From Parietichytrium sp. I65-24A (taxonomy: Eukaryota > Sar > Bigyra > Thraustochytrida > Thraustochytriidae): a stretch of 64,000 nucleotides of DNA. Below, one piece after another: positions 19,733 through 64,000 of the stretch. The position numbers and the translations under genes are program-made. The stretch spans positions 255,712-319,711 of the forward strand of contig BLSF01000034.1 of the NCBI GenBank assembly GCA_012862575.1. The letters run 5' to 3'. Each line of letters begins with the position of its first letter. Within the stretch, counting starts at the first letter, position 1. Under the pieces are notes generated by a model. It saw only the letters and a list, made by a program, of their open reading frames with translations. It ran no database searches and was not told where the DNA came from.

Positions 19733-20187
19733 AGGAGAGCAAAGTGGGAAAGGGGAACTTGGAGAGTTGGGCACTCCTCGTGAGAGAGAGAGAGAGAGAG
19801 ATAGAGAGCGAAGGAAAGAAGGAAGGAAGGAGAGCGAGAGGTGCGCGTGGCGCTGGTGGCCTAGCATTTCGCCTGGCCAAGCAGCGCTAGGCGAAAGGCT
19901 GAGAGAGCAGGCGGACACGGTTGCATACTTTGCATACTTTGCATACTTTGCATACTTGCAGTTGTTTGCTGGAGCACAGTGCGAAAGCCGCGTCCTTTTG
20001 GGCTGCCGTTGTCGATTGTCGATTGGCGATTGGCGATTGGCGATTGGCCACGCGGTTGGCGGCTCGATTGGACCCGTTCCGTTTGGGCTTGAATAGGTGC
20101 GAAAGGTTGGCCAAAATCGGACGATCGAGGAGTTGAGCAGGTGAGGAGGTGAGGAGGTGAGGAGCTGCCCACGGTGCAGGCGTGAAA
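18268..20187. other. Intergenic with AT-rich and GA-rich low-complexity DNA
   Basis: AT-rich ATTCAAAATTC-type repeats lie at 18450-18540 downstream of UBA3. From 19690 the strand is GA-rich. CGAGGACAC occurs at 19615-19623. Iterated TTTGCATAC (19921-19958), GCGATTG (20010-20048) and GGAGGTGA (20140-20163) lead up to the next ATG. No gene is seen. Confidence 0.6.
19694..19808. repeat. GA microsatellites upstream of HAT gene
   Basis: Two (GA)n blocks (about 19694-19732 and 19782-19808) lie on the sense strand of the gene starting at 20188, in a region otherwise full of short direct repeats. Confidence 0.9.
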
Positions 20188-23100
20188 ATGTACCAAGGAC
20201 AAGGGTGGCAAGATGAGTCGGAGGACGACGAGGTGCAGGGGATCTTTGAAAAGCGCGAATATGAGGACGTCGTGCACAGGTTTAGCGGCCTGATGGGGCA
20301 AAATTTGTTCGGGGGAAAGAGTTTCATAGAGACACCGAAACGCAGCCAGCTGAACGCGAACGTCCCGGAGTACACGCCTGATTCGCATCAGCAGATGCTG
20401 TACCACCAGCATGCGATGATGAACTCCGCGATGATGTCCAGCGGGGCGCTGGACGCTGGTCACACGGAGCAATACTCGCATCAGACGTCCAACTATCCGC
20501 AGGAACAACAGCAGCAGCAGTGGCAGGAAGCCATGCGGACAAAGAGAAGAACGCCTGGGCCAAGTCCCGGCGCAAATGCATCTAACGGCGCGAATAACCA
20601 ACAAGCCAACGGAGGGCCGAGCCCCACAAATCCTTTCAGATACGGGCTGGGGTTCAACTACCCTTTGGGTAAAACCGGTCTCACGCCAGTTAGCTTTGCT
20701 GAGGACCAGCAGCACCCGTTTGCAAACTCTTACAACGTTCCAAACTTCATGCATACTCACCCCGACATGAACATGACGCAGCAACAACAGCCGCCAAACG
20801 CTCACGCACAGCAAATGCATTCTGGTAGCGCCTGGTACGAACAATTACCTCAGGGCGGCCCACTGTCTGCCAAGGGGTACGGTAGTGGTGGGTATGGCTC
20901 ATCAGACCTCGCTGGCGGCGATGGCAGCGGCGATAATACCTTCGAATATGGTGGCGTGGAAGGAAGCGCTGCCAAAAACCTTGACTTCTCAGCCCCATTT
21001 TTGCAATCCGTGGCCGATGAAGTTGGAGCTGAGGTCGACTACCCTGGTGGCGGGGACGCATCTTACGGTGGCGCTCAAGGGGAGTTCAGAGTGCACCACC
21101 AAGGAAGTGCAAACTCGCCCAACTTGTTTTCGATGCCTAGCACAGGCTTTTATGGTTTTGGAGACTACACAGGGCAGGAACACCCTTCCATGTACTCTGA
21201 GGCTGGGCATGACCACCTTGTCTACCCCGCGATGCACCACACGCAACAGGGATTCGGGAACAATTACGGCAACGACAGCGCAGTCTCTCCAAGCCAAAAA
21301 GATGGGAGGCTGGGGCCGAGCGCCAGAGACCAGCAGCATGGCAAGGGACTTTTGTCCCCTTCCTCGCAACAGCAAACAACATTTAGCAACACTAATAGTG
21401 GCCAGGTTGGCGCTCTGCCTTCGCACAAATTCTACGCGTACAATAATAACGCTGGAGGCCCGGGCAGAGGAGGAAGCGTAGTGCCTCAAACAAAAGTCCA
21501 GAGCCCTCCAAACTACGCGAAAGCTGCAATGCAAGGGAACAGGGGCATTCATGGGGTGCATGGGCAGCATTCTCAAGCACAGCAGTTTGCCGAAGCTTAC
21601 CAAGTGCAGCAGCAGCAGCCTGGAGTGAAGGCGCAAGGGCTGGGTCCGGGCTCTTTTCCACACGCGAACAATTCGGGTTATCATCCGGAGGCACGTCATC
21701 AACAGCAACAGCAGTTCCAGCCCGGGAACCATCGGATCCAACATGACGGGGCACAGTACTTTGCAGAGGAAGAAGAGCGGAAGGACAAGCGAGACAGTGT
21801 CAGCAGCACCTCTGGACCCGGGCCCCGGTCGAATTTTGGTGGGGGTCCATTCGTCGCCGGCAAAGGCGGAAACCGACGCGTGTCAAACTCGATCGACAGC
21901 AGTCGAAGCTCTGCATCGAGTTCGATTGACAGTCAGACGTCGAAGGACGCTTTTGCAATGAAGAAGCGGCAAGAACTTGAAGAGTCACCTCAAACGCGGA
22001 GCATCTTCAAGGACTTTTATAAGACATTCCGTACGAAGGAGAAAGAGGGGTACGACGAGGCGTTTGCTTACGCTTCTGCGTGCCTAGAGTCGAAGGAGAC
22101 GCCAGAGAAGATTCATTGGAAAATTTATCTTGAAATGGCGGATCTTGCAAAGCGGGAGAATCGTTTCTACGAGGCGAGGAAATTGTATCAGCTTGTGAAT
22201 CAAACCCAACCTTATGCCCATCAGGGGTGGTTGGAATACTCCAAGATGGAGGAGGAGTGCGGACGGTTGCACCAGTGTCGCCTCATACTTCATCAGGGGT
22301 TGGAGTATTGTAATTACGCAGAGCAGCTTTTAACCAAGGCCATAAAGCACGAAGAAAGGATGGGGAACCTTCAAGGTGCGCGGTCTTTGCTGGCTCGTCT
22401 GCGAAATCAGAGCGTAGACAAGACGTGGAGGACGATCTTGGAAGGGGCCTTGTTGGAGGCGAGAGCAGGCAACATCATCGTCGCTCGCAAGGTTTTCAAG
22501 TACTTGATGCGCCACGTTCCTTGGTACGGCCCAATTTATTACGAGGCCACCAAGTTCGAAGAGAAGAATGAGGAATTTGAAAGAGCGATTACCATTGTGG
22601 AGAAGGGATTGAAAGAGATTCCGCGGTACGGGCCACTGTGGTTTAATGCGTTCCGACTCCACGAGAAAATGGAAATGGAGCTGGCAAGAGCCGAGGCGAG
22701 TTCGGCTCCAAGATCCAGCTTGCCGATGAAGTTGTTGCGAGACGATGTAGACGAATCGGTCGATTTGTTTGAAATGTTCGGCACCACCGGAGAGGAGTTT
22801 CAAGCTGCGCCGCTCACTTGCCAGCTGTTGCGCACTCGGGGTTCGCTTCAGCGCGCAATGAATTGCATTTCCAAGGAGCTGGTGTGGAAGGTGCATTTCG
22901 AAGCTGCGCAAGTGGCCGAGCGAGGCGGCGGGGACGATTCACTTGAGCGAGCCCGGCATGCTTACGTTCAGAGTATCCTGCGGTGTCCAGTAAATCTACG
23001 ATGGAAGGTGTGGCTCGCAGGAGCTCGCGCCGAACTCACTCATGGATACATCAAGAAAGCTAGGTCCCTTCTCGACCGCGCCCTTCAGGATGTTCCAACA

Positions 23101-24084
23101 AAGTCGAAAGCTCAGGTGCTTTTGGAGTATTCTAGGTTAGAGGAGTACACCGGCAACTTACAAGAAGCTCGAAGTATCTTGGCCCTTGCCAGAAATGAAA
23201 CGAGACACGAATGGAAGGTTTTCTTGGAAAGTGTGATGCTCGAGGTTCGCCACGGAAATCATCAAGATGCAATCCGCGCCGCGGAAGACGCTCTTGCGAT
23301 TCACTCCGGTACTGGTCGCCTCTGGGCCATTTTGGTTCAGCTCAAGCACATCCACGGTCCTGATGCCCAGCGTCTTATCTTTCGGGAGGCGCTCAAGCAG
23401 GTTCCAAAGTCCGGCGAAGTGTGGTGCGAAGGTGCGCGCATTCATATGCACCCCCTCTCCCCGCACATGGATCTAGACACCGCTCAGCGGTATCTTCAGT
23501 TCGCCATCCAGTTCACCCCGCAATACGGAGACTCGTTCATAATCGCACTACGATGGCAATTGCTCTATGCCAACTTTGGAAATGGCAAACTGAGCCATCA
23601 GGATGCTTCCACTACACTCGAGGAGAGTGAGTTTTTGAACAACATGGAGAGGTGCGACACAAGTGACCTTGAGCTCAAGTGCGTCAACGCTGACCCAAAT
23701 TACGGGTCTTTGTGGTTTCATTGCAAAAGAGGCCCCTTTGACACTGCGCGCCAGGTTTTGCGTACCGCGAAGAAGCTTCTTATTGCAGAGCTGACCAAAT
23801 TTAGGTACGTGTATCGTGACGCAATTCTCGATTCAGTCCGTCGAAAGACCGAGCACGTTCTGCATCCTTCAAAGGCAAGAACAAAAGCGCGCACAACCCC
23901 TGCTCTCGCGAATGGGGAGAACGTATGGTTGACAGAGCGGCTCCAGCGCATTCCAGGAGCAGAAAAGTACTGCGACTTCAGCTCGGGGCTTTTGTGTGTG
24001 AACTGGCTGCGAGAACACGTAGATAAGCTAGTTGACTCGGAACGACGCAAGTTCTTGTTTGGATCGGACCAGATCGTCCCTTGA
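20188..24084 (+). CDS. Large HAT/TPR-repeat protein with Gln/Asn-rich N-terminus
   Basis: The 1298-residue single-exon product has two halves. Residues 1 to about 590 are low-complexity and rich in Gln, Asn, Gly, Ser, His and Tyr, with many short QQ runs, a prion-like composition. Residues about 605-1225 form a long helical-repeat solenoid with HAT (half-a-TPR) features: repeated W-x-x-Y/F or W-x-x-F/A on one helix and E-x-x-x-G-N/R then A-R-x-I/L on the next (for example RKLYQLV, GARSLLARL, EARSILALAR). HAT proteins scaffold RNA-processing complexes such as Clf1/Syf1, Prp6, CstF77 and HCF107. The protein may belong to the 'RNA-processing protein, HAT helix' group seen in plants and protists, but I cannot name an orthologue. 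Likely nuclear or in RNA granules, by inference. The ATG at 20188 lies two codons after a GTG. Confidence 0.8.
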   Translation: MYQGQGWQDESEDDEVQGIFEKREYEDVVHRFSGLMGQNLFGGKSFIETPKRSQLNANVPEYTPDSHQQMLYHQHAMMNSAMMSSGALDAGHTEQYSHQTSNYPQEQQQQQWQEAMRTKRRTPGPSPGANASNGANNQQANGGPSPTNPFRYGLGFNYPLGKTGLTPVSFAEDQQHPFANSYNVPNFMHTHPDMNMTQQQQPPNAHAQQMHSGSAWYEQLPQGGPLSAKGYGSGGYGSSDLAGGDGSGDNTFEYGGVEGSAAKNLDFSAPFLQSVADEVGAEVDYPGGGDASYGGAQGEFRVHHQGSANSPNLFSMPSTGFYGFGDYTGQEHPSMYSEAGHDHLVYPAMHHTQQGFGNNYGNDSAVSPSQKDGRLGPSARDQQHGKGLLSPSSQQQTTFSNTNSGQVGALPSHKFYAYNNNAGGPGRGGSVVPQTKVQSPPNYAKAAMQGNRGIHGVHGQHSQAQQFAEAYQVQQQQPGVKAQGLGPGSFPHANNSGYHPEARHQQQQQFQPGNHRIQHDGAQYFAEEEERKDKRDSVSSTSGPGPRSNFGGGPFVAGKGGNRRVSNSIDSSRSSASSSIDSQTSKDAFAMKKRQELEESPQTRSIFKDFYKTFRTKEKEGYDEAFAYASACLESKETPEKIHWKIYLEMADLAKRENRFYEARKLYQLVNQTQPYAHQGWLEYSKMEEECGRLHQCRLILHQGLEYCNYAEQLLTKAIKHEERMGNLQGARSLLARLRNQSVDKTWRTILEGALLEARAGNIIVARKVFKYLMRHVPWYGPIYYEATKFEEKNEEFERAITIVEKGLKEIPRYGPLWFNAFRLHEKMEMELARAEASSAPRSSLPMKLLRDDVDESVDLFEMFGTTGEEFQAAPLTCQLLRTRGSLQRAMNCISKELVWKVHFEAAQVAERGGGDDSLERARHAYVQSILRCPVNLRWKVWLAGARAELTHGYIKKARSLLDRALQDVPTKSKAQVLLEYSRLEEYTGNLQEARSILALARNETRHEWKVFLESVMLEVRHGNHQDAIRAAEDALAIHSGTGRLWAILVQLKHIHGPDAQRLIFREALKQVPKSGEVWCEGARIHMHPLSPHMDLDTAQRYLQFAIQFTPQYGDSFIIALRWQLLYANFGNGKLSHQDASTTLEESEFLNNMERCDTSDLELKCVNADPNYGSLWFHCKRGPFDTARQVLRTAKKLLIAELTKFRYVYRDAILDSVRRKTEHVLHPSKARTKARTTPALANGENVWLTERLQRIPGAEKYCDFSSGLLCVNWLREHVDKLVDSERRKFLFGSDQIVP

Positions 24085-53444: not shown

Positions 53445-56429
53445 TCACTTCTTGCTATTCATATTTATTGCATTGCCAGCTCGGTTCTCATCCTTGGTCA
53501 TGGCCTCGACTGCAGCCAGAGAATCCTTGGTCTTGGTGGAAGACTTTTTAAAGCTATTCTTCAGTTTCTTGCTAATTTTGTCCACCTTCAATTGCTTGTC
53601 CAGTTGCTTGCTGGTGGCGGCAAGGCTGTCGGCCAGGTCAGACTTTCTTCGTGACTTGTCGCTTTGTCTTTTCTTCTTGTCATCGACCACGCGCGTGAGA
53701 GCGTTCTCCTCCTTTGCCTTCACAAGAGACTTGCAGAAGGCCACCGCAGTGCCGAAAAGCTGCGAAGCAGAGCATTTTGAAGGTACCTCGCCATGCAGCT
53801 CTAAAAGTTTGGTCGCCATCTTTTGCACATTGTCCATCTGGTTCTGAATCTGCTCGGTGACAGGCTTGCCGTTCTCAACCAAAAATGGCTTCATGCAGTC
53901 GATAAAGTCGCGTGCGCCAGGGGCGGTGGAAGGCACGCCGAAGGTCTCCCCAGAACACGCCTTGAGCTCGCGCTCGACTAGTTCGCACCCTTTCTTCAGC
54001 TGCGCGAGGTCTGCCTTCAGGTCCTCGAGATTCATGGCGGACGCATCTTCCAGTTTGTCAAGCCGCTCTGCGAGGGTGAGCAGCTCCGGGCACTTGTGCT
54101 CTGCCACATCCGCGATCCAATGAAGGAGCGAGTACTTGGAGTTCCCAGTTGCCTTGGACTGTGACAGTTTTTGCAAACCGGTACTGATTTCGAAACCCCA
54201 TGCACCTCCAGTGGACTTGTTTCCGCAGTTGAGGTAGTTTCCTGTGATAAGCACGAGGTGAATGAGCTTTTTCCACTCCGCGCAATTGAGCAACTGCCTG
54301 CACGCCGCATCGTACTTGGCAATGGATTCCTGCAGGCACTCAGACTGGCGCTCAAATGTCATTTCTACAAACACTGCCTGCAGACGTTGTCTGAGGCGAG
54401 GGATCTTTGCCATCTCATAGACAAAGTGCTCCACGCGAGAGAGGCTGTCAGTGAACTTGCCTGGGCCCGACCATTCGCCCTCTGCTGCGTTCACTGCCTG
54501 GACCTCTTCCGGGCTTGGGACCATCGTCAAAAGTTTGTGCACGACCTCCATAGTAAAGAAGCTCTGGTCCATCTTGAGAATGTACTCTTTCAAGTCGCTC
54601 ACTGGCTCCTTGAAACGCGCAATCGCGATTCCCAAGTTTTGCTGGCGCTTGCCGTCCAAGAGTGGAGGTCGTTCATTGCCAGTCTTCTCTTTGGCGCTTG
54701 GGCTCAGAGCCGGAATTTTCTTCGCCTCCGTCTTTGCGAAGTTTTCTTCCAGCCCAGCAAAGAAAGTGTCCATCGGAAACGGTGGGGCGTCAGGGAGTGT
54801 TGCCCACATCGAGTTCTCTACTCTCTTGGCGGGAAGCACGTTCCAAAAGACACCACGAAGCGGCTTCTCTTTGGCATTTTGACGGAGCTCCTTGCGACGA
54901 GTGGTGTCGTACTTGCTCTTCGGCTCAGGTGGCTCCTCTGGCTTGCCCGCGGCCTTGATGGCAGCCAACGCACCGCCCATTCCAGGCAAAGGTGGGGCAT
55001 TTGGTGGAGCTGCTCCCATGCCTGGAAGAGGCGGAGGAGCTGGTGGTCCGCTCGGCCCTGTTGTAGAGAAAAAGTCCGGTGGAAGCTGGACGCCGTCTCT
55101 GCCCGCAGCCTGAATAACTGCGCCCTCCGGAAGCCCGGCCTTTTGCATCTTGCGATACTTTGCAAATTTTGGGTCTTCCTGGACCACAGGTGCAGCTGGG
55201 GACGCTGCTGGAACTGGCCCAGAAAAGAATGTTGCTGGGAGCTCGATGCCATCGCGAGACGCTGCTTGACAGATGGCTCCCTCTGGCAAACCAGCCTTCT
55301 GCATCTTTCTGTATTTCTGGTATTTGGGGTCTTCTTGTACAACAGGCGCCGCCGGTGCCTGCGCTGGAGCGCTGGATGGAATTGGTCCACTGAAAAATGT
55401 TGCTGGCAGGTCGACGCCGTCGCGACTTGCGGCTTGCATGATGGCGCCTTCTGGAAGTCCTGCTTTCTGCATCTTGCGGTATTTGAGGAATTTGGGGTCC
55501 TCTTGCGGCACAGCCGCTGCCTGGATTGGAAGAGCCGGAGCCGCAGGCGGGGCTGCTGCAGTCGGAGCTGGTTCTGTGAAGAACGTGGAAGGAAGCTCGA
55601 CCCCGTCGCGGGCGGCGGCATGGGTAATCGCCCCTTCCGGGAGGCCCGCCTTCTGCATTTTTCTGTACTTTTGGAATTTGGGGTCTTCAGCAGGTTGTGG
55701 CGGTGGGAGAGGGGCTGCAAGAGCGACAGACTCCAACGAAGCACCGGAACCACCTTGCAGGGAATTGAGCTGCTTCAGACGAGAATTCTGGTCCATGAGG
55801 AACTCGACTTGCTGCTGCAACTCAAGGATGTGCGACTCGCTCTCTTTCTTGAGCTCCTCGATCATGGCCTTCATGTTGTGAATGCCATCTGAGTCCATCT
55901 GGCCATTTCGGATGCGCTCGTTCTCCTGCTGGAGCTCAGAGATGAGCTTCTTCTGGTCGTGGATCTCCTTGAGCTTCTCTCGGCTAAGCGCCTGGAGGTC
56001 CTGTTGCAGCTCGGATGGGATTATTGCAATGTTTCGGCTGCTGTTGTAACCATTATTCCGTGGCTTTTCAAGCATACTCGCGACCATTGAAAACTTCTGG
56101 TTCAGAGCCTTTGGCATTTTTTTCTCCTGAGGAGCTGTGTTGGTCGCAGAAGAGGAGCTCCTGCGAAGACCCCCAAAGATGCGCTTGGGCATCTTCAGAT
56201 TCCAGAAACGACCCTTGTCTTTTGCTTTCACATCCTTCACCCACTTTCCCATAAACTCGCAGTCCTTGCAAACAATGGAGGCTTCCTCAACCCCATCTTC
56301 ACCAGTGTGCTTTACCTCCCGCACGCACCGATTGCAGATGGTATTGGAGCAGTTTGAGCAACATTTCCTTTCCTCAAATCCTACAAAGTCAGAGCTGCAG
56401 CACAAGCACTGGTCAACACCTTCCGCCAT
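53445..56429 (-). CDS. Formin with N-terminal FYVE-like zinc finger and four WASH-subunit-type repeats
   Basis: The 994-residue product nucleates and elongates unbranched actin filaments. An N-terminal Cys-rich finger (C8/C11, C24/C27, C32/C35, C54/C57) has FYVE-like spacing but lacks the RHHCR lipid-binding motif. A coiled coil follows (about 140-225). Four repeats of about 37 residues come next (248-284, 310-346, 366-402, 418-454). Each contains DPK-F/Y-x-KYRKMQKAGLPEG-A and RDG-V/I-x-LP, like the CCDC53/WASHC3 motif. A short FH1-like Pro-rich stretch (456-486, APPPLPGMG, APPLPGMG) precedes an FH2 domain (about 515-900). FH2 hallmarks are GVFWNVLPAKR, the helical core, and LVLITGNYLNCGNKSTGGAWGF. 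The Lys-rich tail (about 915-980) may be a DAD-like or membrane-binding region. ATG at 56429. Single exon. Confidence 0.9.
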   Translation of the reverse strand: MAEGVDQCLCCSSDFVGFEERKCCSNCSNTICNRCVREVKHTGEDGVEEASIVCKDCEFMGKWVKDVKAKDKGRFWNLKMPKRIFGGLRRSSSSATNTAPQEKKMPKALNQKFSMVASMLEKPRNNGYNSSRNIAIIPSELQQDLQALSREKLKEIHDQKKLISELQQENERIRNGQMDSDGIHNMKAMIEELKKESESHILELQQQVEFLMDQNSRLKQLNSLQGGSGASLESVALAAPLPPPQPAEDPKFQKYRKMQKAGLPEGAITHAAARDGVELPSTFFTEPAPTAAAPPAAPALPIQAAAVPQEDPKFLKYRKMQKAGLPEGAIMQAASRDGVDLPATFFSGPIPSSAPAQAPAAPVVQEDPKYQKYRKMQKAGLPEGAICQAASRDGIELPATFFSGPVPAASPAAPVVQEDPKFAKYRKMQKAGLPEGAVIQAAGRDGVQLPPDFFSTTGPSGPPAPPPLPGMGAAPPNAPPLPGMGGALAAIKAAGKPEEPPEPKSKYDTTRRKELRQNAKEKPLRGVFWNVLPAKRVENSMWATLPDAPPFPMDTFFAGLEENFAKTEAKKIPALSPSAKEKTGNERPPLLDGKRQQNLGIAIARFKEPVSDLKEYILKMDQSFFTMEVVHKLLTMVPSPEEVQAVNAAEGEWSGPGKFTDSLSRVEHFVYEMAKIPRLRQRLQAVFVEMTFERQSECLQESIAKYDAACRQLLNCAEWKKLIHLVLITGNYLNCGNKSTGGAWGFEISTGLQKLSQSKATGNSKYSLLHWIADVAEHKCPELLTLAERLDKLEDASAMNLEDLKADLAQLKKGCELVERELKACSGETFGVPSTAPGARDFIDCMKPFLVENGKPVTEQIQNQMDNVQKMATKLLELHGEVPSKCSASQLFGTAVAFCKSLVKAKEENALTRVVDDKKKRQSDKSRRKSDLADSLAATSKQLDKQLKVDKISKKLKNSFKKSSTKTKDSLAAVEAMTKDENRAGNAINMNSKK

Positions 56430-59403
56430 GATGGTTGAATTTCAGGGACTTGCGACCCGCTGAACGGCCTATTTGGTGATTACTCAACAAAACTCCTTCG
56501 CCTCTCCCCGCTGCCGCCGCTTCAGAATTCGATGCACGCTCTCCCGAGCTCGAAGAGCCTCCTGCAGCCGTGTCCGCCTCAGCTGAGATCGACGTGGGCG
56601 CGACGCAAACAGTTACGAACCTGAATGCTGCAATATTTTAGCGTGCACAATCAAGTTTGTGGGATGCTCTAGCTCGGCAATCGTGAGTGGAAAGTATACG
56701 TTATAGAGCCATAGACAGTGACTGGGCGAAACAGTCCACAGTCACCAGACGTGCAATGTTGGCGAAAGGGTTCTCAACTCTCGTAGCACGGCCTACTTGA
56801 GCGACTTGTCCGTACGTGTCAGGGAGGTCAATTTGGATCTGGTTTCGATTGACGTACCGGCACGGCAAGTACTTGGTCTATGCGGGAAGGTTGGCTACCT
56901 TCTTGGTCCATGGAGCAACGTGCTTTCGAGTTGCCCGAACGTGCTCATTGCAGCATGCAAATATAATGCTGATTGTGTTGGACACCGCATTGTTATAATA
57001 CTTGACCGGAATCTCCCGTGCGCGATCTGCCACGCCGATTCCATCAAATGCCGCAGGGCTCTTCCCTTCAGAGTGCATGTGGCACCAGAAGTCAGCTACA
57101 ACTTGCCACCCATACTGTAATTATGATTGCATCGCACAAGAATACTTTTTATAGACTCTAGCACAAACAGGCCCCCTCCCTTCCTACTCTGCCGCGGGCG
57201 AGGCGAAACGTTAAGTAAAAGTGGCCAACTCCCAGGATGTGTCCATTGTCTCCCTATGCCTCCCTATTCTCTTTCTCTCACTCTGCTTGCTTGCTTGCTT
57301 GCGTGATAATGAATAGAGCAATCTCATGTATAGTTCGGCGAATGTGTCCATCTGGTCCATTTGTTTGCACGATTATACACCGAATTTTAGTTGAAAGTCG
57401 AAATGGTTTATGCAAATGTTCGGCCGGGCTTCTCTTTCGAGCACTCAAATGCTTCTGTGCCAACTCGCATGCGCGAAGAAGGACGGAGAGTGCCAGGTGG
57501 ATGGATAACCCTAGTGGCGGAAGGATGGATCGATGGATGGATGAATGGATGATACTCAGTCAAAGAGCATAACGCAATGAACGGGTGGACGAATGTGGAC
57601 TCGTTCTATTCGCCTCGGGAAGTACCAAAGGATGGGCGATTCCTGTGCTCCTTAGACTACGCCGCTACGCCGCATGTTCGATGTTCGCATGGGCCGAGGA
57701 AGCAAGCCGCCCCGCTCCGGCCAGCATGGCGTGGATGAGTCCGTGCCAACTACCAGACTTGCGCTGGCTTGATGGCCCAGATCATTGAGAATGGGGCCAA
57801 ATGCCCGCCTAATGCGAGGCTCACTTTTTCCTGAGACCGTTTCCAACGTTTTATAGCTTTCCATCAACTTTTTTTTCTTTTTTTTTTATTGATTGATTTG
57901 ATGATGATCGAAGCATTTGGTTAGAAAAACATTGCACGAATCTGTCCGTTAAATCTTGCCGCTTCTAAAGAAACCACTAGCTAGGCTAGCTATATAGTGA
58001 TATTATTAATATTTTTGATAGTGGCCACCGTAAGCACATCGTTATTCGTTTCGTAGCAAAGCTTTTAATGGTATTATTTCCGTTAGCAGATTATTACTTA
58101 TAGTAAATCAATAGCAAGCCCTACCGAGTTGCGATTGACCCCGCGAGCAATGTTTTGTTCTCTCGGTTCTGGCGACACATCAGAGCATCGACCGCGCTGT
58201 GTTCGTGACCTCAATGATTCCAGGATTTGCTTGTCCATGAATCTTCCTCTTTTCAGTTTTGGGCTGAGCTCGTAGAGCTCGTTGAACATTCATTCGAGGT
58301 TCAACAAATGGATTCCTTCCTTATGCCTTTCGATACTTCACGACAAGAAGCACTTGATCATATTTGGAACCTACTCATCGATTTCCATTTCTTATGCGCA
58401 CAGACTCATGCTTGGACACTGTTGAAAGTGACCATTTAAGCCTGCTCGCAGCGCCAGCTGTCGCATCACAGTCTCGTAATGCTTGTGGAAGTGCCCGACA
58501 AACGCACCCAGCTTTTGGATTACCGTCCACTTCCGCGCCAAGCTTCACAAGCTTATCTTGCTAGGTCAAACGCGCTCCACTCTCTCACCTCGGTGACGGG
58601 AAATCGAAAAGCGCTCTAGTCTACTCGGTCTTGCTTCCCTTCACTTTCTTTCTCAACATGAGACACGAAAACAGCAGCGAGCGGGAATCTCGTGGCCACC
58701 CGTGCTCCGGTTGAAGAAACCATTGGCCAGCTCGGTGTCATCACATTGAAAGTGAGATTCGCGGAAGCTATTGTGGTCGTCGCCATTTACGTCTTCTTGT
58801 CCACAGTTCATTAAAGGCTGGCACATAGCTTGAGTTCCGAAGAAAGCGAGTGACGTATGACAGAATTTTCCCACGAGACACAGACCTTCGTCAATCTCCC
58901 CGAGCATCCAGTGATGCGCTTTATTTCTTTGACGTATCTGTTTTTGGTTGAGTGCAACCTCAACGGCGTTCAAGATGAGACTGAAGAACCCAAGGGAGTT
59001 TTCCAGTCAAAACCAGTTTTCGCAGCCGCCTTGGATAACACATTCAATTGGTTTCCGGCACGGGAATCACGGGAATGTCATTCTTAAAAATTGTTCCTCG
59101 CAAAGCTTGCAAAGAAATCCTGGACTCCCACACAGGCGCCTTCGACCTGGTTCCTGCTGCATTTGTCAATCAGAAAGAGAATGCCGGCTCCTTTCCCGAG
59201 ATGAGCCCCGACTCCGGTTGCGCTCAAGGTCAAAGAGAGGTACATAACTAGGCGAATAACTCAAATGGGAACATAGCTGGAACCGAGGTCGCCTTTCTTG
59301 ACGGCATTGGCTGGTGAGTGTACTCGGGTAACGAACTGAGCCGCTGAGGTTATTGTCATGGCCGGAAAACAGATTTGGTACTGATTGATTGATCGATTGA
59401 TTA

Positions 59404-60590: not shown

Positions 60591-62324
60591 ATGAGCGTGG
60601 CCGAGGAGAAGAAGATGACCGCCAGCGCAACTTCGCCAACAGCAGGGCAACCTCAGCTTGGCAGGCCTGTGAAGGACGCGGAAAAAGAAGACTTTTCCAC
60701 ATCGGTGCAGACGCAGCTGGTGCGACGGCAGAGCTCGGTAGAGATCGCAGCCGATGCTTCATTCGATGAGGGGGAGCACAAGGTGTCTCCGCGAGACTTT
60801 GATCTGCTGACGGTAATCGGCAAAGGGGCGTACGGCCGCGTGCTGCAGGTGAAGGAGACGCGTACAGACCAAATCTACGCGATGAAGGTCTTGCAGAAGG
60901 GACATGTGATCAAAAAGAACAATATGGGTTACGTCCGTGAGGAGAGGAACATCCTTAGTCAGGCTGACCATCCATTCGTGGTAGCGCTCATGTGTGCCTT
61001 CCAAACGGAGGACAAGCTTTATCTGGTGATGGAGTACGTCTGCGGGGGTGAGCTTTTCTCACACTTGCGCAACGAAGGAGCGTTTGACGAGAAGCAAACG
61101 AGATTCTACTCTGGCGAGATGATATTGGCAATTGAGTACCTGCATCAGCATGGAATCATCCACCGCGACCTCAAGCCTGAGAACGTTCTTCTCGATGGAG
61201 ATGGCCACATTCGAATCACAGACTTTGGCCTGGCCAAGATCGACCTTGAAAACAAAAAGGAAGCGCGCACACTTTGTGGGACAGACTTGTACATGGCACC
61301 GGAGATGCTTGCGTGCAAATCGGGCTCTCAAGGGTACGGCAAGGCAGTAGACTATTGGAGTCTAGGTGTAATGATCTTTGAGATGCTGACCGGGGACACT
61401 CCGTTTTACGCAAAAGACACCCAGAAGCTGTACAAGATGATTTTGACTTCCAAGCCCAAGTTTCCTCGATGGCTCTCCAACACCTGTCTATCCCTCTTAA
61501 AGGGTCTATTAAACAAGAATGTCGAGCAGCGACTAGGCGCCGCGGAATCCACGATGTTCAAAGTTGGCGGAGTCAAGGCTCTCAAGCAGCACGAATTTTT
61601 TCAGGATCTCGACTGGGCAAAGCTAGAGAAAAAAGAGTACCCGCCCCCCATCTCCCCGACTCTGAGCGATGGTAAATTAGACACTTCCAACTTTGCGAAG
61701 ATCTTCACTGAGCTGGAGCCCAACGATGTGGACGAAGAGGGTAATGAGCAATATAATACGCACTTGGCGAAAGAGACTCCGGAAGACTTTAAAGGGTTTT
61801 CCTTCACGCGCCCGAGCTATTTGGACGCGGCTATGTCTGCCAGAAAGAAGTCTGTTAATCGAGTGGACTCGAGCGGCGTGCGCATTCCCCAGGTTATAGA
61901 GTCGGACAACGAATGCTCAAGTCACGCGACGAGTGCACCGAATTCGAGATCAAACTCGGTCGATGACAGGAGTGTCAGGTCTCTCGACTCCCGCCAAGAC
62001 AATGAGCAGCAAGAAGTCGACCAAGCAAAGGTTGTCACCCCAGCTCCTATCCAGGAGAGTGCCGAGGAGTCCGAGACTGGACAGGGTGCCGAGGACGCCT
62101 CTGCGTACTTTTCGAAACAAACTGTTCCAGTACAAGTTAGCTCAAACAAGCCAGTGTCGGGCTTAACGTCACTTAGAAAGAGTGTGCCAGCGTCATTGGC
62201 ACCAGAACGCGGTGGCGGCGAGTCAGCCTTGGCGCCCCCGCCCAAGCCTTCTTTGAATCCGAATGCCAAGCAATGGACGCCCAATCCCAATGCAAGAGAA
62301 TGGGTTCCACCCTGGCTAAAGTAG
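60591..62324 (+). CDS. AGC-family Ser/Thr kinase (S6K/Akt/SGK-like) with C-terminal PAM2-like motifs
   Basis: The 577-residue product starts at the first ATG, 60591. After a disordered 70-residue N-terminus with no PH or other domain comes the kinase domain (about 70-337): IGKGAYGRV, K99, HRDLKPEN (D193), DFG (211-213) and a T-loop ARTLCGTDLYMAPE with T227 as the PDK1-type site. The AGC C-tail ends in the hydrophobic motif FKGFSF (400-405, S404). This architecture fits S6K, SGK or Akt-like kinases downstream of PDK1/TORC signalling. No further assignment is safe. The disordered tail (410-577) ends with two PAM2-like motifs, LNPNAKQWTP (555-564) and PNPNAREWVP (564-573). Their Trp in place of Phe is like the LARP4 'PAM2w' variant that binds the MLLE domain of poly(A)-binding protein. 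Confidence 0.9.
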   Translation: MSVAEEKKMTASATSPTAGQPQLGRPVKDAEKEDFSTSVQTQLVRRQSSVEIAADASFDEGEHKVSPRDFDLLTVIGKGAYGRVLQVKETRTDQIYAMKVLQKGHVIKKNNMGYVREERNILSQADHPFVVALMCAFQTEDKLYLVMEYVCGGELFSHLRNEGAFDEKQTRFYSGEMILAIEYLHQHGIIHRDLKPENVLLDGDGHIRITDFGLAKIDLENKKEARTLCGTDLYMAPEMLACKSGSQGYGKAVDYWSLGVMIFEMLTGDTPFYAKDTQKLYKMILTSKPKFPRWLSNTCLSLLKGLLNKNVEQRLGAAESTMFKVGGVKALKQHEFFQDLDWAKLEKKEYPPPISPTLSDGKLDTSNFAKIFTELEPNDVDEEGNEQYNTHLAKETPEDFKGFSFTRPSYLDAAMSARKKSVNRVDSSGVRIPQVIESDNECSSHATSAPNSRSNSVDDRSVRSLDSRQDNEQQEVDQAKVVTPAPIQESAEESETGQGAEDASAYFSKQTVPVQVSSNKPVSGLTSLRKSVPASLAPERGGGESALAPPPKPSLNPNAKQWTPNPNAREWVPPWLK

Positions 62325-63191: not shown

Positions 63192-64000
63192 TTACGAACG
63201 ACCGTCAAGCCTCGCGAGTAGCACGCGCTTGAAGCGCTCCGAGAAGTCAGCCATCGCTTGCCAGTCGAAGCCGTCCTCGAAAGATTCGCCTGACTTGGCG
63301 GTGCCGAGCCAGTCCAACCCCGCGCAGTCAACCATGTCCTTCAATTCACCGGACTGAATTACTCTGCCAATCTCGTACAGAGTGTGGCCGCGCGAAGCCA
63401 TGGCTTTGAGGAGCTCAGTGCTTACGCAGAGAGAGGTGAGCTCTTCCATCCCTAGCCCGTTCCCGAGCGAGCTGCGCAAAAGCTTCACATCTTGCTTCGC
63501 GTCCAGGTTGCGAATGTACTCTTTGGCATCCGGCAGAAAGGGTTGTTTCGCTTGTGGCCAGTTCATCCATTCAAGAACAATGCATTCCTCGTCGGTGGCA
63601 GTGTCCGAGTCTGAGGTGCGGGACAATTGAGAGATTTTAGGAAGACAGAGCCCGTGGTCGATCGGGACCAGCCGGATCTCGTGTGGCGCCGAGCCACCAC
63701 CACAAAAGCTCTCCGAACGGCGGTTGTAGCGCCTCGTTGGTGCGCTGGAAAACTCCTTGGAGGCCTTTGAGTTGGTGTAACCATCCCTCTCCACGGTTTG
63801 AATCAAGATGTTGCCGCCATGCCGATCCAAGTTGAGGAGCCGAACGTCAAGAATTCCGATGCGCTGAACCGACTCCAGAGGAAACAACGAGCAACCAATG
63901 TCGTCTGCGCTACTGTGGTGAGACACGTATGCCTGCAACGACCCAACCTTGGAGGCTAGCGGGACACAGTTTTGCGACCGATTTGGTGGCGTTGATGCAT
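63192..64000 (-). CDS. Phosphatidylinositol 4-kinase, plant gamma-type, 3' part
   Basis: At least 269 C-terminal residues are visible, and the frame stays open to the window edge, so the 5' part lies outside. The segment SKVGSLQAYVS, then FPLESVQRIGILDVRLLNLD, then DRHGGNIL and RLVPIDHGLCLP matches the catalytic core of PI4K gamma (type II-like PI3/4-kinase family). DRHGGN is the catalytic loop and IDHG corresponds to the DFG-type metal-binding motif. The following WMNWPQAKQPFLPDAKEYI and LDAKQDVKLLR segments also match that family's C-lobe. Some plant PI4K gamma members carry N-terminal ubiquitin-like domains and act as protein kinases instead. The upstream domains are needed to tell. Product: PI4P or phosphoprotein. 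Stop TAA at 63192-63194. Confidence 0.85.
   Translation of the reverse strand, partial: ASTPPNRSQNCVPLASKVGSLQAYVSHHSSADDIGCSLFPLESVQRIGILDVRLLNLDRHGGNILIQTVERDGYTNSKASKEFSSAPTRRYNRRSESFCGGGSAPHEIRLVPIDHGLCLPKISQLSRTSDSDTATDEECIVLEWMNWPQAKQPFLPDAKEYIRNLDAKQDVKLLRSSLGNGLGMEELTSLCVSTELLKAMASRGHTLYEIGRVIQSGELKDMVDCAGLDWLGTAKSGESFEDGFDWQAMADFSERFKRVLLARLDGRS

What the first reader, a model, noticed from the sequence alone, without database searches (positions are those of the whole stretch)
62250..62309. Twin PAM2w-like motifs at the C-terminal end of an AGC kinase
The kinase tail ends in LNPNAKQWTP followed directly by PNPNAREWVP, nine residues out of phase. PAM2 motifs (consensus roughly LNxxAxxFxP) bind the MLLE domain of poly(A)-binding protein. 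LARP4 uses a variant with Trp in the Phe position, and both copies here have that Trp. A growth-signalling-type kinase tethered to poly(A)-binding protein would link phosphorylation directly to translating or stalled mRNA. I do not know of such an AGC kinase. The motif match is direct from sequence; the binding is inference.
Basis: partly seen in the sequence, partly recalled or inferred. Interest (0 to 1): 0.72.

Follow-up and report, generated by a model that had tools for sequence, protein, structure and literature searches.

The report
AGC kinase with release-factor-like PABP-binding tail
A protein kinase in a compact eukaryote genome ends in two overlapping peptide motifs laid out like those that the translation release factor eRF3 uses to hold poly(A)-binding protein, which suggests, but does not prove, that the kinase works on messenger RNA tails.

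Summary
A 577-residue AGC kinase (60591-62324, +) ends in LNPNAKQWTPNPNAREWVPPWLK-stop. Pfam's PAM2 is the only family matching the tail, in two stretches, but below its cut-off (17.2 of 20 bits). The pair is unlikely to be chance: 0 of 200,000 shuffles of the 161-residue tail gave it. A lone NPNAxxW in this 42.5 Mb genome is at chance level (8 matches).

The pair has the register of eRF3/GSPT1's overlapping PAM2 motifs: nine residues apart, no Leu in the second, the first aromatic placed to serve both. Of 15 eRF3 positions named by Kozlov and Gehring, 9 are identical; both aromatics are Trp. That predicts one PABP per kinase, not two. One MLLE domain was found in the genome, in a PABP-like frame; 22 of 26 compared MLLE positions are as in human PABPC1.

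The kinase is not the genome's most S6K-like one; its AGC subfamily is unresolved. Binding, orthologue conservation and the genome's own eRF3 were not tested: no relatives are held, and the genome server stopped answering.

The parts
60591..62324 (+). AGC kinase gene, 577 aa, one open frame (no intron needed), stop TAG 62322-62324
   Evidence: Pfam Pkinase 6.4e-75
60804..61547 (+). protein kinase domain, residues 72-319, with GKGAYGRV, AMK, HRDLKPEN, DFG, APE
   Evidence: Pfam PF00069, 252.4 bits; residues read
61671..61805 (+). AGC C-terminal extension, residues 361-405
   Evidence: Pfam PF00433, 26.0 bits, cut-off 20.9
61788..61805 (+). hydrophobic motif FKGFSF, residues 400-405
   Evidence: direct reading; the S6K1 chain 4l46 aligns to residue 409
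61839..62249 (+). tail, residues 417-553, presumed disordered tether
   Evidence: residues 417-577 are rich in S, P, A, V, E; no Pfam match there; disorder is inference
62253..62282 (+). first PAM2w motif LNPNAKQWTP, residues 555-564
   Evidence: Pfam PAM2 sub-threshold
62274..62309 (+). second, overlapping PAM2w-like motif WTPNPNAREWVP, residues 562-573, Pro at the Leu position and Trp at position 1, as Pro78 and Phe76 in eRF3
62310..62321 (+). C-terminal PWLK, residues 574-577

Best explanation
The last 23 residues are an eRF3-type overlapping pair of PAM2 motifs, with Trp in place of Phe, that docks the kinase on the MLLE domain of cytoplasmic poly(A)-binding protein. W562 fills the alpha2/alpha3 pocket when L555 is bound (first register), or bends into the alpha3/alpha5 pocket when W571 is bound (second register), so MLLE slides between two registers and one kinase holds one PABP with a raised affinity. 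About 150 residues of tail between the hydrophobic motif and the PAM2 pair act as a tether, so the catalytic domain is concentrated on poly(A) mRNPs, where it phosphorylates PABP, its neighbours or initiation/deadenylation factors and competes with other PAM2 proteins. Shown: the gene, the kinase signatures, the motif pair and its register, and a PABP-like frame with MLLE in the same genome. Inferred: binding, stoichiometry, tethering, substrates.
For: The register equals eRF3 residues 69-87: 9 of 15 named positions identical, the other 6 being V/P (twice), F/W (twice), V/T and H/N. PMC2854688 accepts P or V at position 5, calls position 6 solvent-exposed and position 11 not conserved. Trp at position 10 binds MLLE pocket A in LARP4B. 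PAM2 is the only Pfam family hit for the tail peptide up to E 10, two stretches. Pair 0 in 200,000 shuffles. Between the repeats the motif positions are kept, three by synonymous codons. One MLLE found in the genome, 107.6 bits, in a 705-residue frame; 51 of 75 aligned residues as in human PABPC1, 22 of 26 positions picked from the two structure papers and the MLLE signature the same. 0 of the 14 nearest other kinase frames carry such a string (14 of the 77 other matches were looked at, and the tail of one of them, L020, was not seen), so it is specific to this gene among those.
Against: Pfam's PAM2 score is below its cut-off of 20: 17.2 bits for 30 residues, 13.4 for 39, none at E<=1 for the full protein. 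LARP4's Trp motif binds weakly (22 uM as quoted in PMC9249222), and in LARP4A changing Trp to Ala or Phe hardly weakened MLLE binding while losing Leu did, which counts against a second motif without Leu. In LARP4B the Trp change had only a slight effect in cells. Four of the 26 MLLE positions differ (Q560D, F567Y, T576L, I588M), two of them in the aromatic pocket; a further contact, His617, lies just outside the compared stretch and is Ala here if the alignment is carried on without gaps. Codon use of the tail is less like the kinase domain's (-0.14 per codon against 0.29), and though its frame is the best of the three forward ones, one reverse frame scores higher (-0.06). No orthologue seen. 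No binding or complex model was run.
Confidence: 0.7

Rival explanations
1. Only the first motif is a working PAM2w, as in LARP4; the second is a decayed or neutral short duplication without the Leu anchor, and the tether is weak.
For: The first motif has all of L, N, P, A, W, P; its core agrees with the LARP4B residues L56 N57 P58 N59 A60 and W63 named in PMC7356810. The two repeats are 18 of 27 bases identical, so a 27-base duplication is likely. In LARP4A the Leu matters more for MLLE than the Trp.
Against: Between the repeats the motif positions are kept, 3 by synonymous changes, and Pro at position 3 with an aromatic at position 1 is what eRF3's second motif uses.
Confidence: 0.15
2. The tail ligand is not MLLE: the NPNAxxWxP repeats bind another domain, fold back on the kinase, or act on RNA like the LARP4A N-terminus.
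For: LARP4A needs its Trp (W22) for oligo(A) binding but hardly for MLLE binding. The tail has only a sub-threshold PAM2 score.
Against: The only family hit for the tail is PAM2, and the partner domain exists in the genome. [quoted passage not shown] Pfam shows no RNA-binding domain in the kinase.
Confidence: 0.1
3. Chance resemblance in a Ser/Pro-rich tail, without function.
For: Single NPNAxxW matches occur at about chance level genome-wide (and own arithmetic); NPNAxxF has 4 matches against 12 for its reversed control; a short duplication could double one chance motif.
Against: Pair 0 of 200,000 shuffles; exact eRF3 register.
Confidence: 0.05

Closest known systems
eRF3/GSPT1 overlapping PAM2-N and PAM2-C (PMC2854688)
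   Same: Two PAM2 motifs nine residues apart, shared central aromatic, second motif with Pro instead of Leu at position 3, Asn-x-x-Ala and Glu-aromatic-x-Pro in the second
   Different: Both motif aromatics are Trp; the module sits at the C-terminus of a kinase, not in the N-terminal region of a GTPase
LARP4/LARP4B PAM2w (PMC7356810, PMC6486636)
   Same: Trp at position 10; core L-N-P-N-A-x-x-W as in the LARP4B residues named
   Different: A pair instead of one; no La module; C-terminal; kinase
Plant Ataxin-2 CID3/CID4 overlapping PAM2 (PMC4105795, passages)
   Same: Two overlapping PAM2 motifs, in the C-terminal part of the protein
   Different: LSm/LsmAD protein; the passages seen do not mention Trp
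Upa2 of Ustilago, four PAM2 motifs (PMC9249222, passages)
   Same: More than one PAM2 in one protein
   Different: A scaffold protein of endosomal mRNA transport, not a kinase; nothing on overlap seen
PAN3 (kinase-like fold recalled; its PAM2 named in PMC2854688)
   Same: Kinase-like domain and a PAM2 with Pro at position 3
   Different: A pseudokinase of a deadenylase (recalled); here a kinase with catalytic signatures
AKT, RSK, SGK and S6K1 kinases
   Same: Kinase domain, AGC C-terminal extension, FxxF[S/T][F/Y] hydrophobic motif (motif recalled)
   Different: HRD not YRD, GTDLYMAPE in the activation segment, long tail with the PAM2 pair, no clear orthology

Membership tests
PAM2 motif | hydrophobic residue at 3 (mostly Leu), Asn/Ser at 4, Pro/Val/Thr at 5, Ala at 7, Phe at 10, Pro at 12 (PMC2854688) | tested here: inconclusive
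   First motif meets all but Phe (Trp); second has Pro at position 3 and Trp at 10
PAM2 motif | Pfam PF07145 over its cut-off of 20 bits | tested here: not met
   17.2 bits for 30 residues, 13.4 for 39, no match at E<=1 for the full protein
PAM2 motif | binds MLLE | not testable with these tools
PAM2w variant | Trp at position 10 in LNxxAxxW | tested here: met
   W562 in LNPNAKQW; the second copy has W571 but no Leu
eRF3-type overlapping PAM2 pair | second core nine residues after the first, aromatic at position 1 and Pro at position 3 of the second | tested here: met
   W562, P564, W571 at the places of Phe76, Pro78, Phe85
eRF3-type overlapping PAM2 pair | 1:1 stoichiometry with raised affinity | not testable with these tools
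   needs calorimetry
AGC kinase | kinase domain plus C-terminal extension with hydrophobic motif | tested here: met
   PF00069 and PF00433 over cut-off; FKGFSF at 400-405
AGC kinase | catalytic signatures (G-loop, Lys, HRD, DFG, APE) | tested here: met
   read; activity itself not tested
p70 S6 kinase | closest to S6K1 and the genome's best S6K relative | tested here: not met
   270.9 bits to S6K1 chain 4l46 against 277.1 to AKT1; another gene (L011/L031) scores 351.9 to the same S6K1 chain

The most novel reading that the evidence does not exclude
A lineage of AGC kinases gained an eRF3-like docking module in Trp form, so that a phosphorylation pathway competes with termination and deadenylation factors for the MLLE of PABP, and may itself be switched by phosphorylation at T563 (a Thr-Pro site inside the pair): a direct kinase-to-poly(A)-tail wire.
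Probability: 0.3. Interest if true: 0.8.

Novelty: new variant of a known kind. Interest (0 to 1): 0.6.

Why it matters
A kinase with its own docking module for poly(A)-binding protein could sit on polyadenylated mRNAs at large and vie with eRF3, Tob and PAN3, which use the same MLLE site (PMC2854688). That would link a phosphorylation signal to the mRNA tail without an adaptor. It also poses a structural question: does the overlapping eRF3 layout, called in 2010 the only example of its kind, work with Trp in both aromatic places?

Tried and rejected
Orthologues: the search for related loci with the kinase in viral contigs gave 2 pattern stretches, no relative; the tandem DNA pattern in viral contigs gave 0. 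These are viral contigs, so this says nothing on conservation; genome contigs (bacteria and archaea) was not scanned, and metagenomes had no scans allotted. The organism was not identified.

Structure: AlphaFold2 on the kinase alone, without alignment, gave mean pLDDT 33; it was not used further.

S6K identity: tempting because of the FKGFSF hydrophobic motif; dropped. The 17-row tree (window kinase, 13 other kinases of the genome, 3 human ones; L020 was dropped as too short) groups the window kinase with four of the genome's kinases at 81/75 only, so its subfamily is left open.

PDB search with the 30-residue tail gave one hit, gamma-glutamyl hydrolase, E 8.1, taken as chance. NCBIfam gave 18 models, all below cut-off.

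Other PAM2 proteins of the genome: NPNAxxF gave 4 places, 12 for the reversed control; their surroundings could not be fetched, so none was judged. Searches for LNxxAxEFxP and Ataxin-2 (LsmAD) did not complete; the genome's own eRF3, LARP and PAN3 were not searched.

Literature: a PAM2 with a kinase, and PAM2w or overlapping PAM2 at large, were sought in searches of one open-licence library (listings were cut in 18: 20 of 52; 32: 20 of 4,953; 53: 20 of 26). No AGC kinase with a PAM2 appeared in the listings or the passages opened. PMC12898128 (passages) lists Ataxin-2 chimeras with kinase domains (RIO2, CAMKK-like, MAPKAPK5), which its authors think may be read-through or artefact. Seen of each paper: PMC7356810 abstract, part 1 of Results, figure legends; PMC2854688 abstract and parts 1-2 of 4 of the text; PMC6486636, PMC4105795, PMC12898128, PMC9249222, PMC2939887 and PMC6313912 passages only; PMC3028612 (LARP4 PAM2w, 2011) is not held.

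Full report
What is there. The window lies in G000, an assembly of 42.5 Mb in 172 contigs, eukaryotic by its PABP, AGC kinases and formin. At 60591-62324 (+) one open frame codes 577 residues. Pfam finds a protein kinase domain (residues 72-319, 252.4 bits) and the AGC C-terminal extension (361-405, 26.0 bits, cut-off 20.9). The catalytic signatures are present: GKGAYGRV, AMK, HRDLKPEN, DFG and APE. FKGFSF at 400-405 is a hydrophobic motif of the AKT/S6K/SGK kind (motif recalled). Then comes a tail, rich in Ser, Pro, Ala, Val and Glu, and the chain ends SLNPNAKQWTPNPNAREWVPPWLK.

Is the motif real? The frame and letters are certain. Pfam's PAM2 model is the only family hit for the last 30 residues at E up to 10, in two stretches, E 0.0041, 17.2 bits against a cut-off of 20; with 39 residues it is 13.4 bits, and the full protein gives none at E up to 1. 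So by the curated standard this is a sub-threshold PAM2; I did not test whether LARP4's own motif passes. Chance was examined three ways. Shuffling the 161-residue tail 200,000 times never gave the pair, and gave one LNxxAxx[FW]xP 21 times; the halves look duplicated, so the pair is not two independent events. NPNAxxW in DNA has 8 matches in the genome, 0 for its reversed control; equal base odds give about 5 (own arithmetic), so one such match means little. Two lie in this gene, 27 bases apart; of the other six none has the Leu before or the Pro after. In 209,952 residues of six-frame open frames held (some counted more than once), the fuller motif was found only here, apart from one match on the opposite strand at this gene's 5' end. 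NPNAxxF is not enriched (4 against 12 for the control).

The pair is an eRF3 layout. Kozlov and Gehring (PMC2854688; abstract and parts 1-2 of 4 read) name eRF3 residues L69 N70 V71 N72 A73 F76 V77 P78 N79 V80 H81 A82 E84 F85 P87. Laid gap-free on the kinase's L555 to P573, 9 of 15 are identical; the rest are V to P twice, F to W twice, V to T and H to N. Their refined motif accepts P, V or sometimes T at position 5, calls positions 6 and 8 solvent-exposed and 11 not conserved, and prefers Glu at 9, which the second kinase motif has and the first (Gln) lacks. In eRF3 the second motif lacks Leu; Phe76 bends back with Pro78 into the Leu pocket, so Phe76 serves both motifs and one MLLE binds; affinities are 3.9 and 3.1 uM alone and 1.3 uM together. 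The kinase has W562 and P564 in just these places. I therefore read the tail as one overlapping module in Trp form. That Trp can sit in the aromatic pocket is known from LARP4B (PMC7356810, Results part 1). Against a strong role of Trp: in LARP4A, W22A or W22F hardly weakened MLLE binding, L15A did (PMC6486636, passages), and in LARP4B the Trp change had a slight effect in cells. PMC4105795 (passages) reports overlapping pairs also in plant Ataxin-2 CID3/CID4.

How the pair arose. The two 27-base units are 18 of 27 identical; of 9 codon pairs 3 are the same, 3 synonymous (P, A, P) and 3 replacing (K/R, Q/E, T/V) at positions 8, 9 and 11. A short duplication followed by selection on the motif is the simplest reading; nine codons are too few for a test.

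The partner. One MLLE domain was found in six frames (107.6 bits), near the end of a 705-residue frame with RRM-like segments (the RRMs are my reading, not a search). It aligns to human PABPC1 at E 4.1e-27, 51 of 75 residues identical. Of 26 positions picked from the two structure papers and the signature, 22 are the same and 4 differ: Q560D, F567Y, T576L, I588M. 560 and 567 line the aromatic pocket. His617, another named contact, lies just beyond the compared stretch; carried on without gaps it is Ala here. Whether these changes favour Trp is untested.

The kinase. Against PDB chains it scores alike to AKT1 277.1, RSK2 275.1, SGK1 272.3 and S6K1 270.9 bits. A different gene (L011, contig C44) scores 353.1 to RSK2 and 351.9 to S6K1 and is the better S6K/RSK relative. 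A 17-row tree leaves the window kinase loosely by four other kinases of the genome (81/75). Its catalytic loop reads HRD where 12 of 13 other own kinases in the tree read YRD and one FRD; its activation segment reads GTDLYMAPE, but several of the others depart from GTPEY too. Of the 77 other kinase matches the 14 best were checked for PAM2-like strings: 0 of 14. Limits: single open frames were read, L020's frame ends inside the kinase domain so its tail was not seen, and L019 and L023 lack N-terminal parts.

Mechanism. Most likely the tail docks the kinase on PABP, one to one, through two alternating registers, and works as a tether that concentrates the kinase on poly(A) mRNPs (0.7). Shown: gene, kinase signatures, motif register, partner domain. 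Inferred: binding, stoichiometry, substrates, competition with other PAM2 proteins. T563-P564 is a Thr-Pro inside the pair, so phosphorylation there could tune docking (inference).

What could not be done. After no genome search or fetch was answered, so the genome's own eRF3, Ataxin-2, LARP and PAN3 were not seen. Folding the kinase alone failed (mean pLDDT 33). The tail's codon use does not by itself prove coding: its frame is the best forward one but one reverse frame scores higher.

Known or new. Kinase and motif kinds are each known. I found no AGC kinase with a PAM2 in literature searches, which cover one open-licence library with some listings cut, and of which I opened only the texts named in Tried and rejected. 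New variant of a known kind, interest 0.6.

Noticed in passing
63192-63998 (-): Neighbouring frame, cut by the window end, matches PI3/PI4-kinase (Pfam 4.4e-18); it runs towards the AGC kinase, tail to tail.
   Followed up: no
53445-56438 (-): Formin with FH2 domain (1e-75); long frames on both strands overlap here.
   Followed up: no
20161-24084 (+): Open frame of 1307 residues, beginning in a stretch of high AT skew (0.188 at 20001-22000); not identified.
   Followed up: no
60591-62324, catalytic loop and activation segment: The AGC kinase reads HRDLKPEN where 13 of 13 other own kinases in the tree read Y/F-RD, and GTDLYMAPE in the activation segment.
   Followed up: partly
L003 and L004 (G000:C11:174372 and 178506): The same 21 bases with NPNAxxW twice, 4.1 kb apart, in short frames: perhaps a repeat.
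   Followed up: no
L002:343-1878 (-): A sulfotransferase-like frame carries NPNAKLW without the Leu and Pro of PAM2.
   Followed up: partly
L025 (PABP MLLE, G000:C13:328761-328958): Human Q560 and F567, both at the aromatic pocket, are Asp and Tyr here; could bear on a taste for Trp.
   Followed up: no
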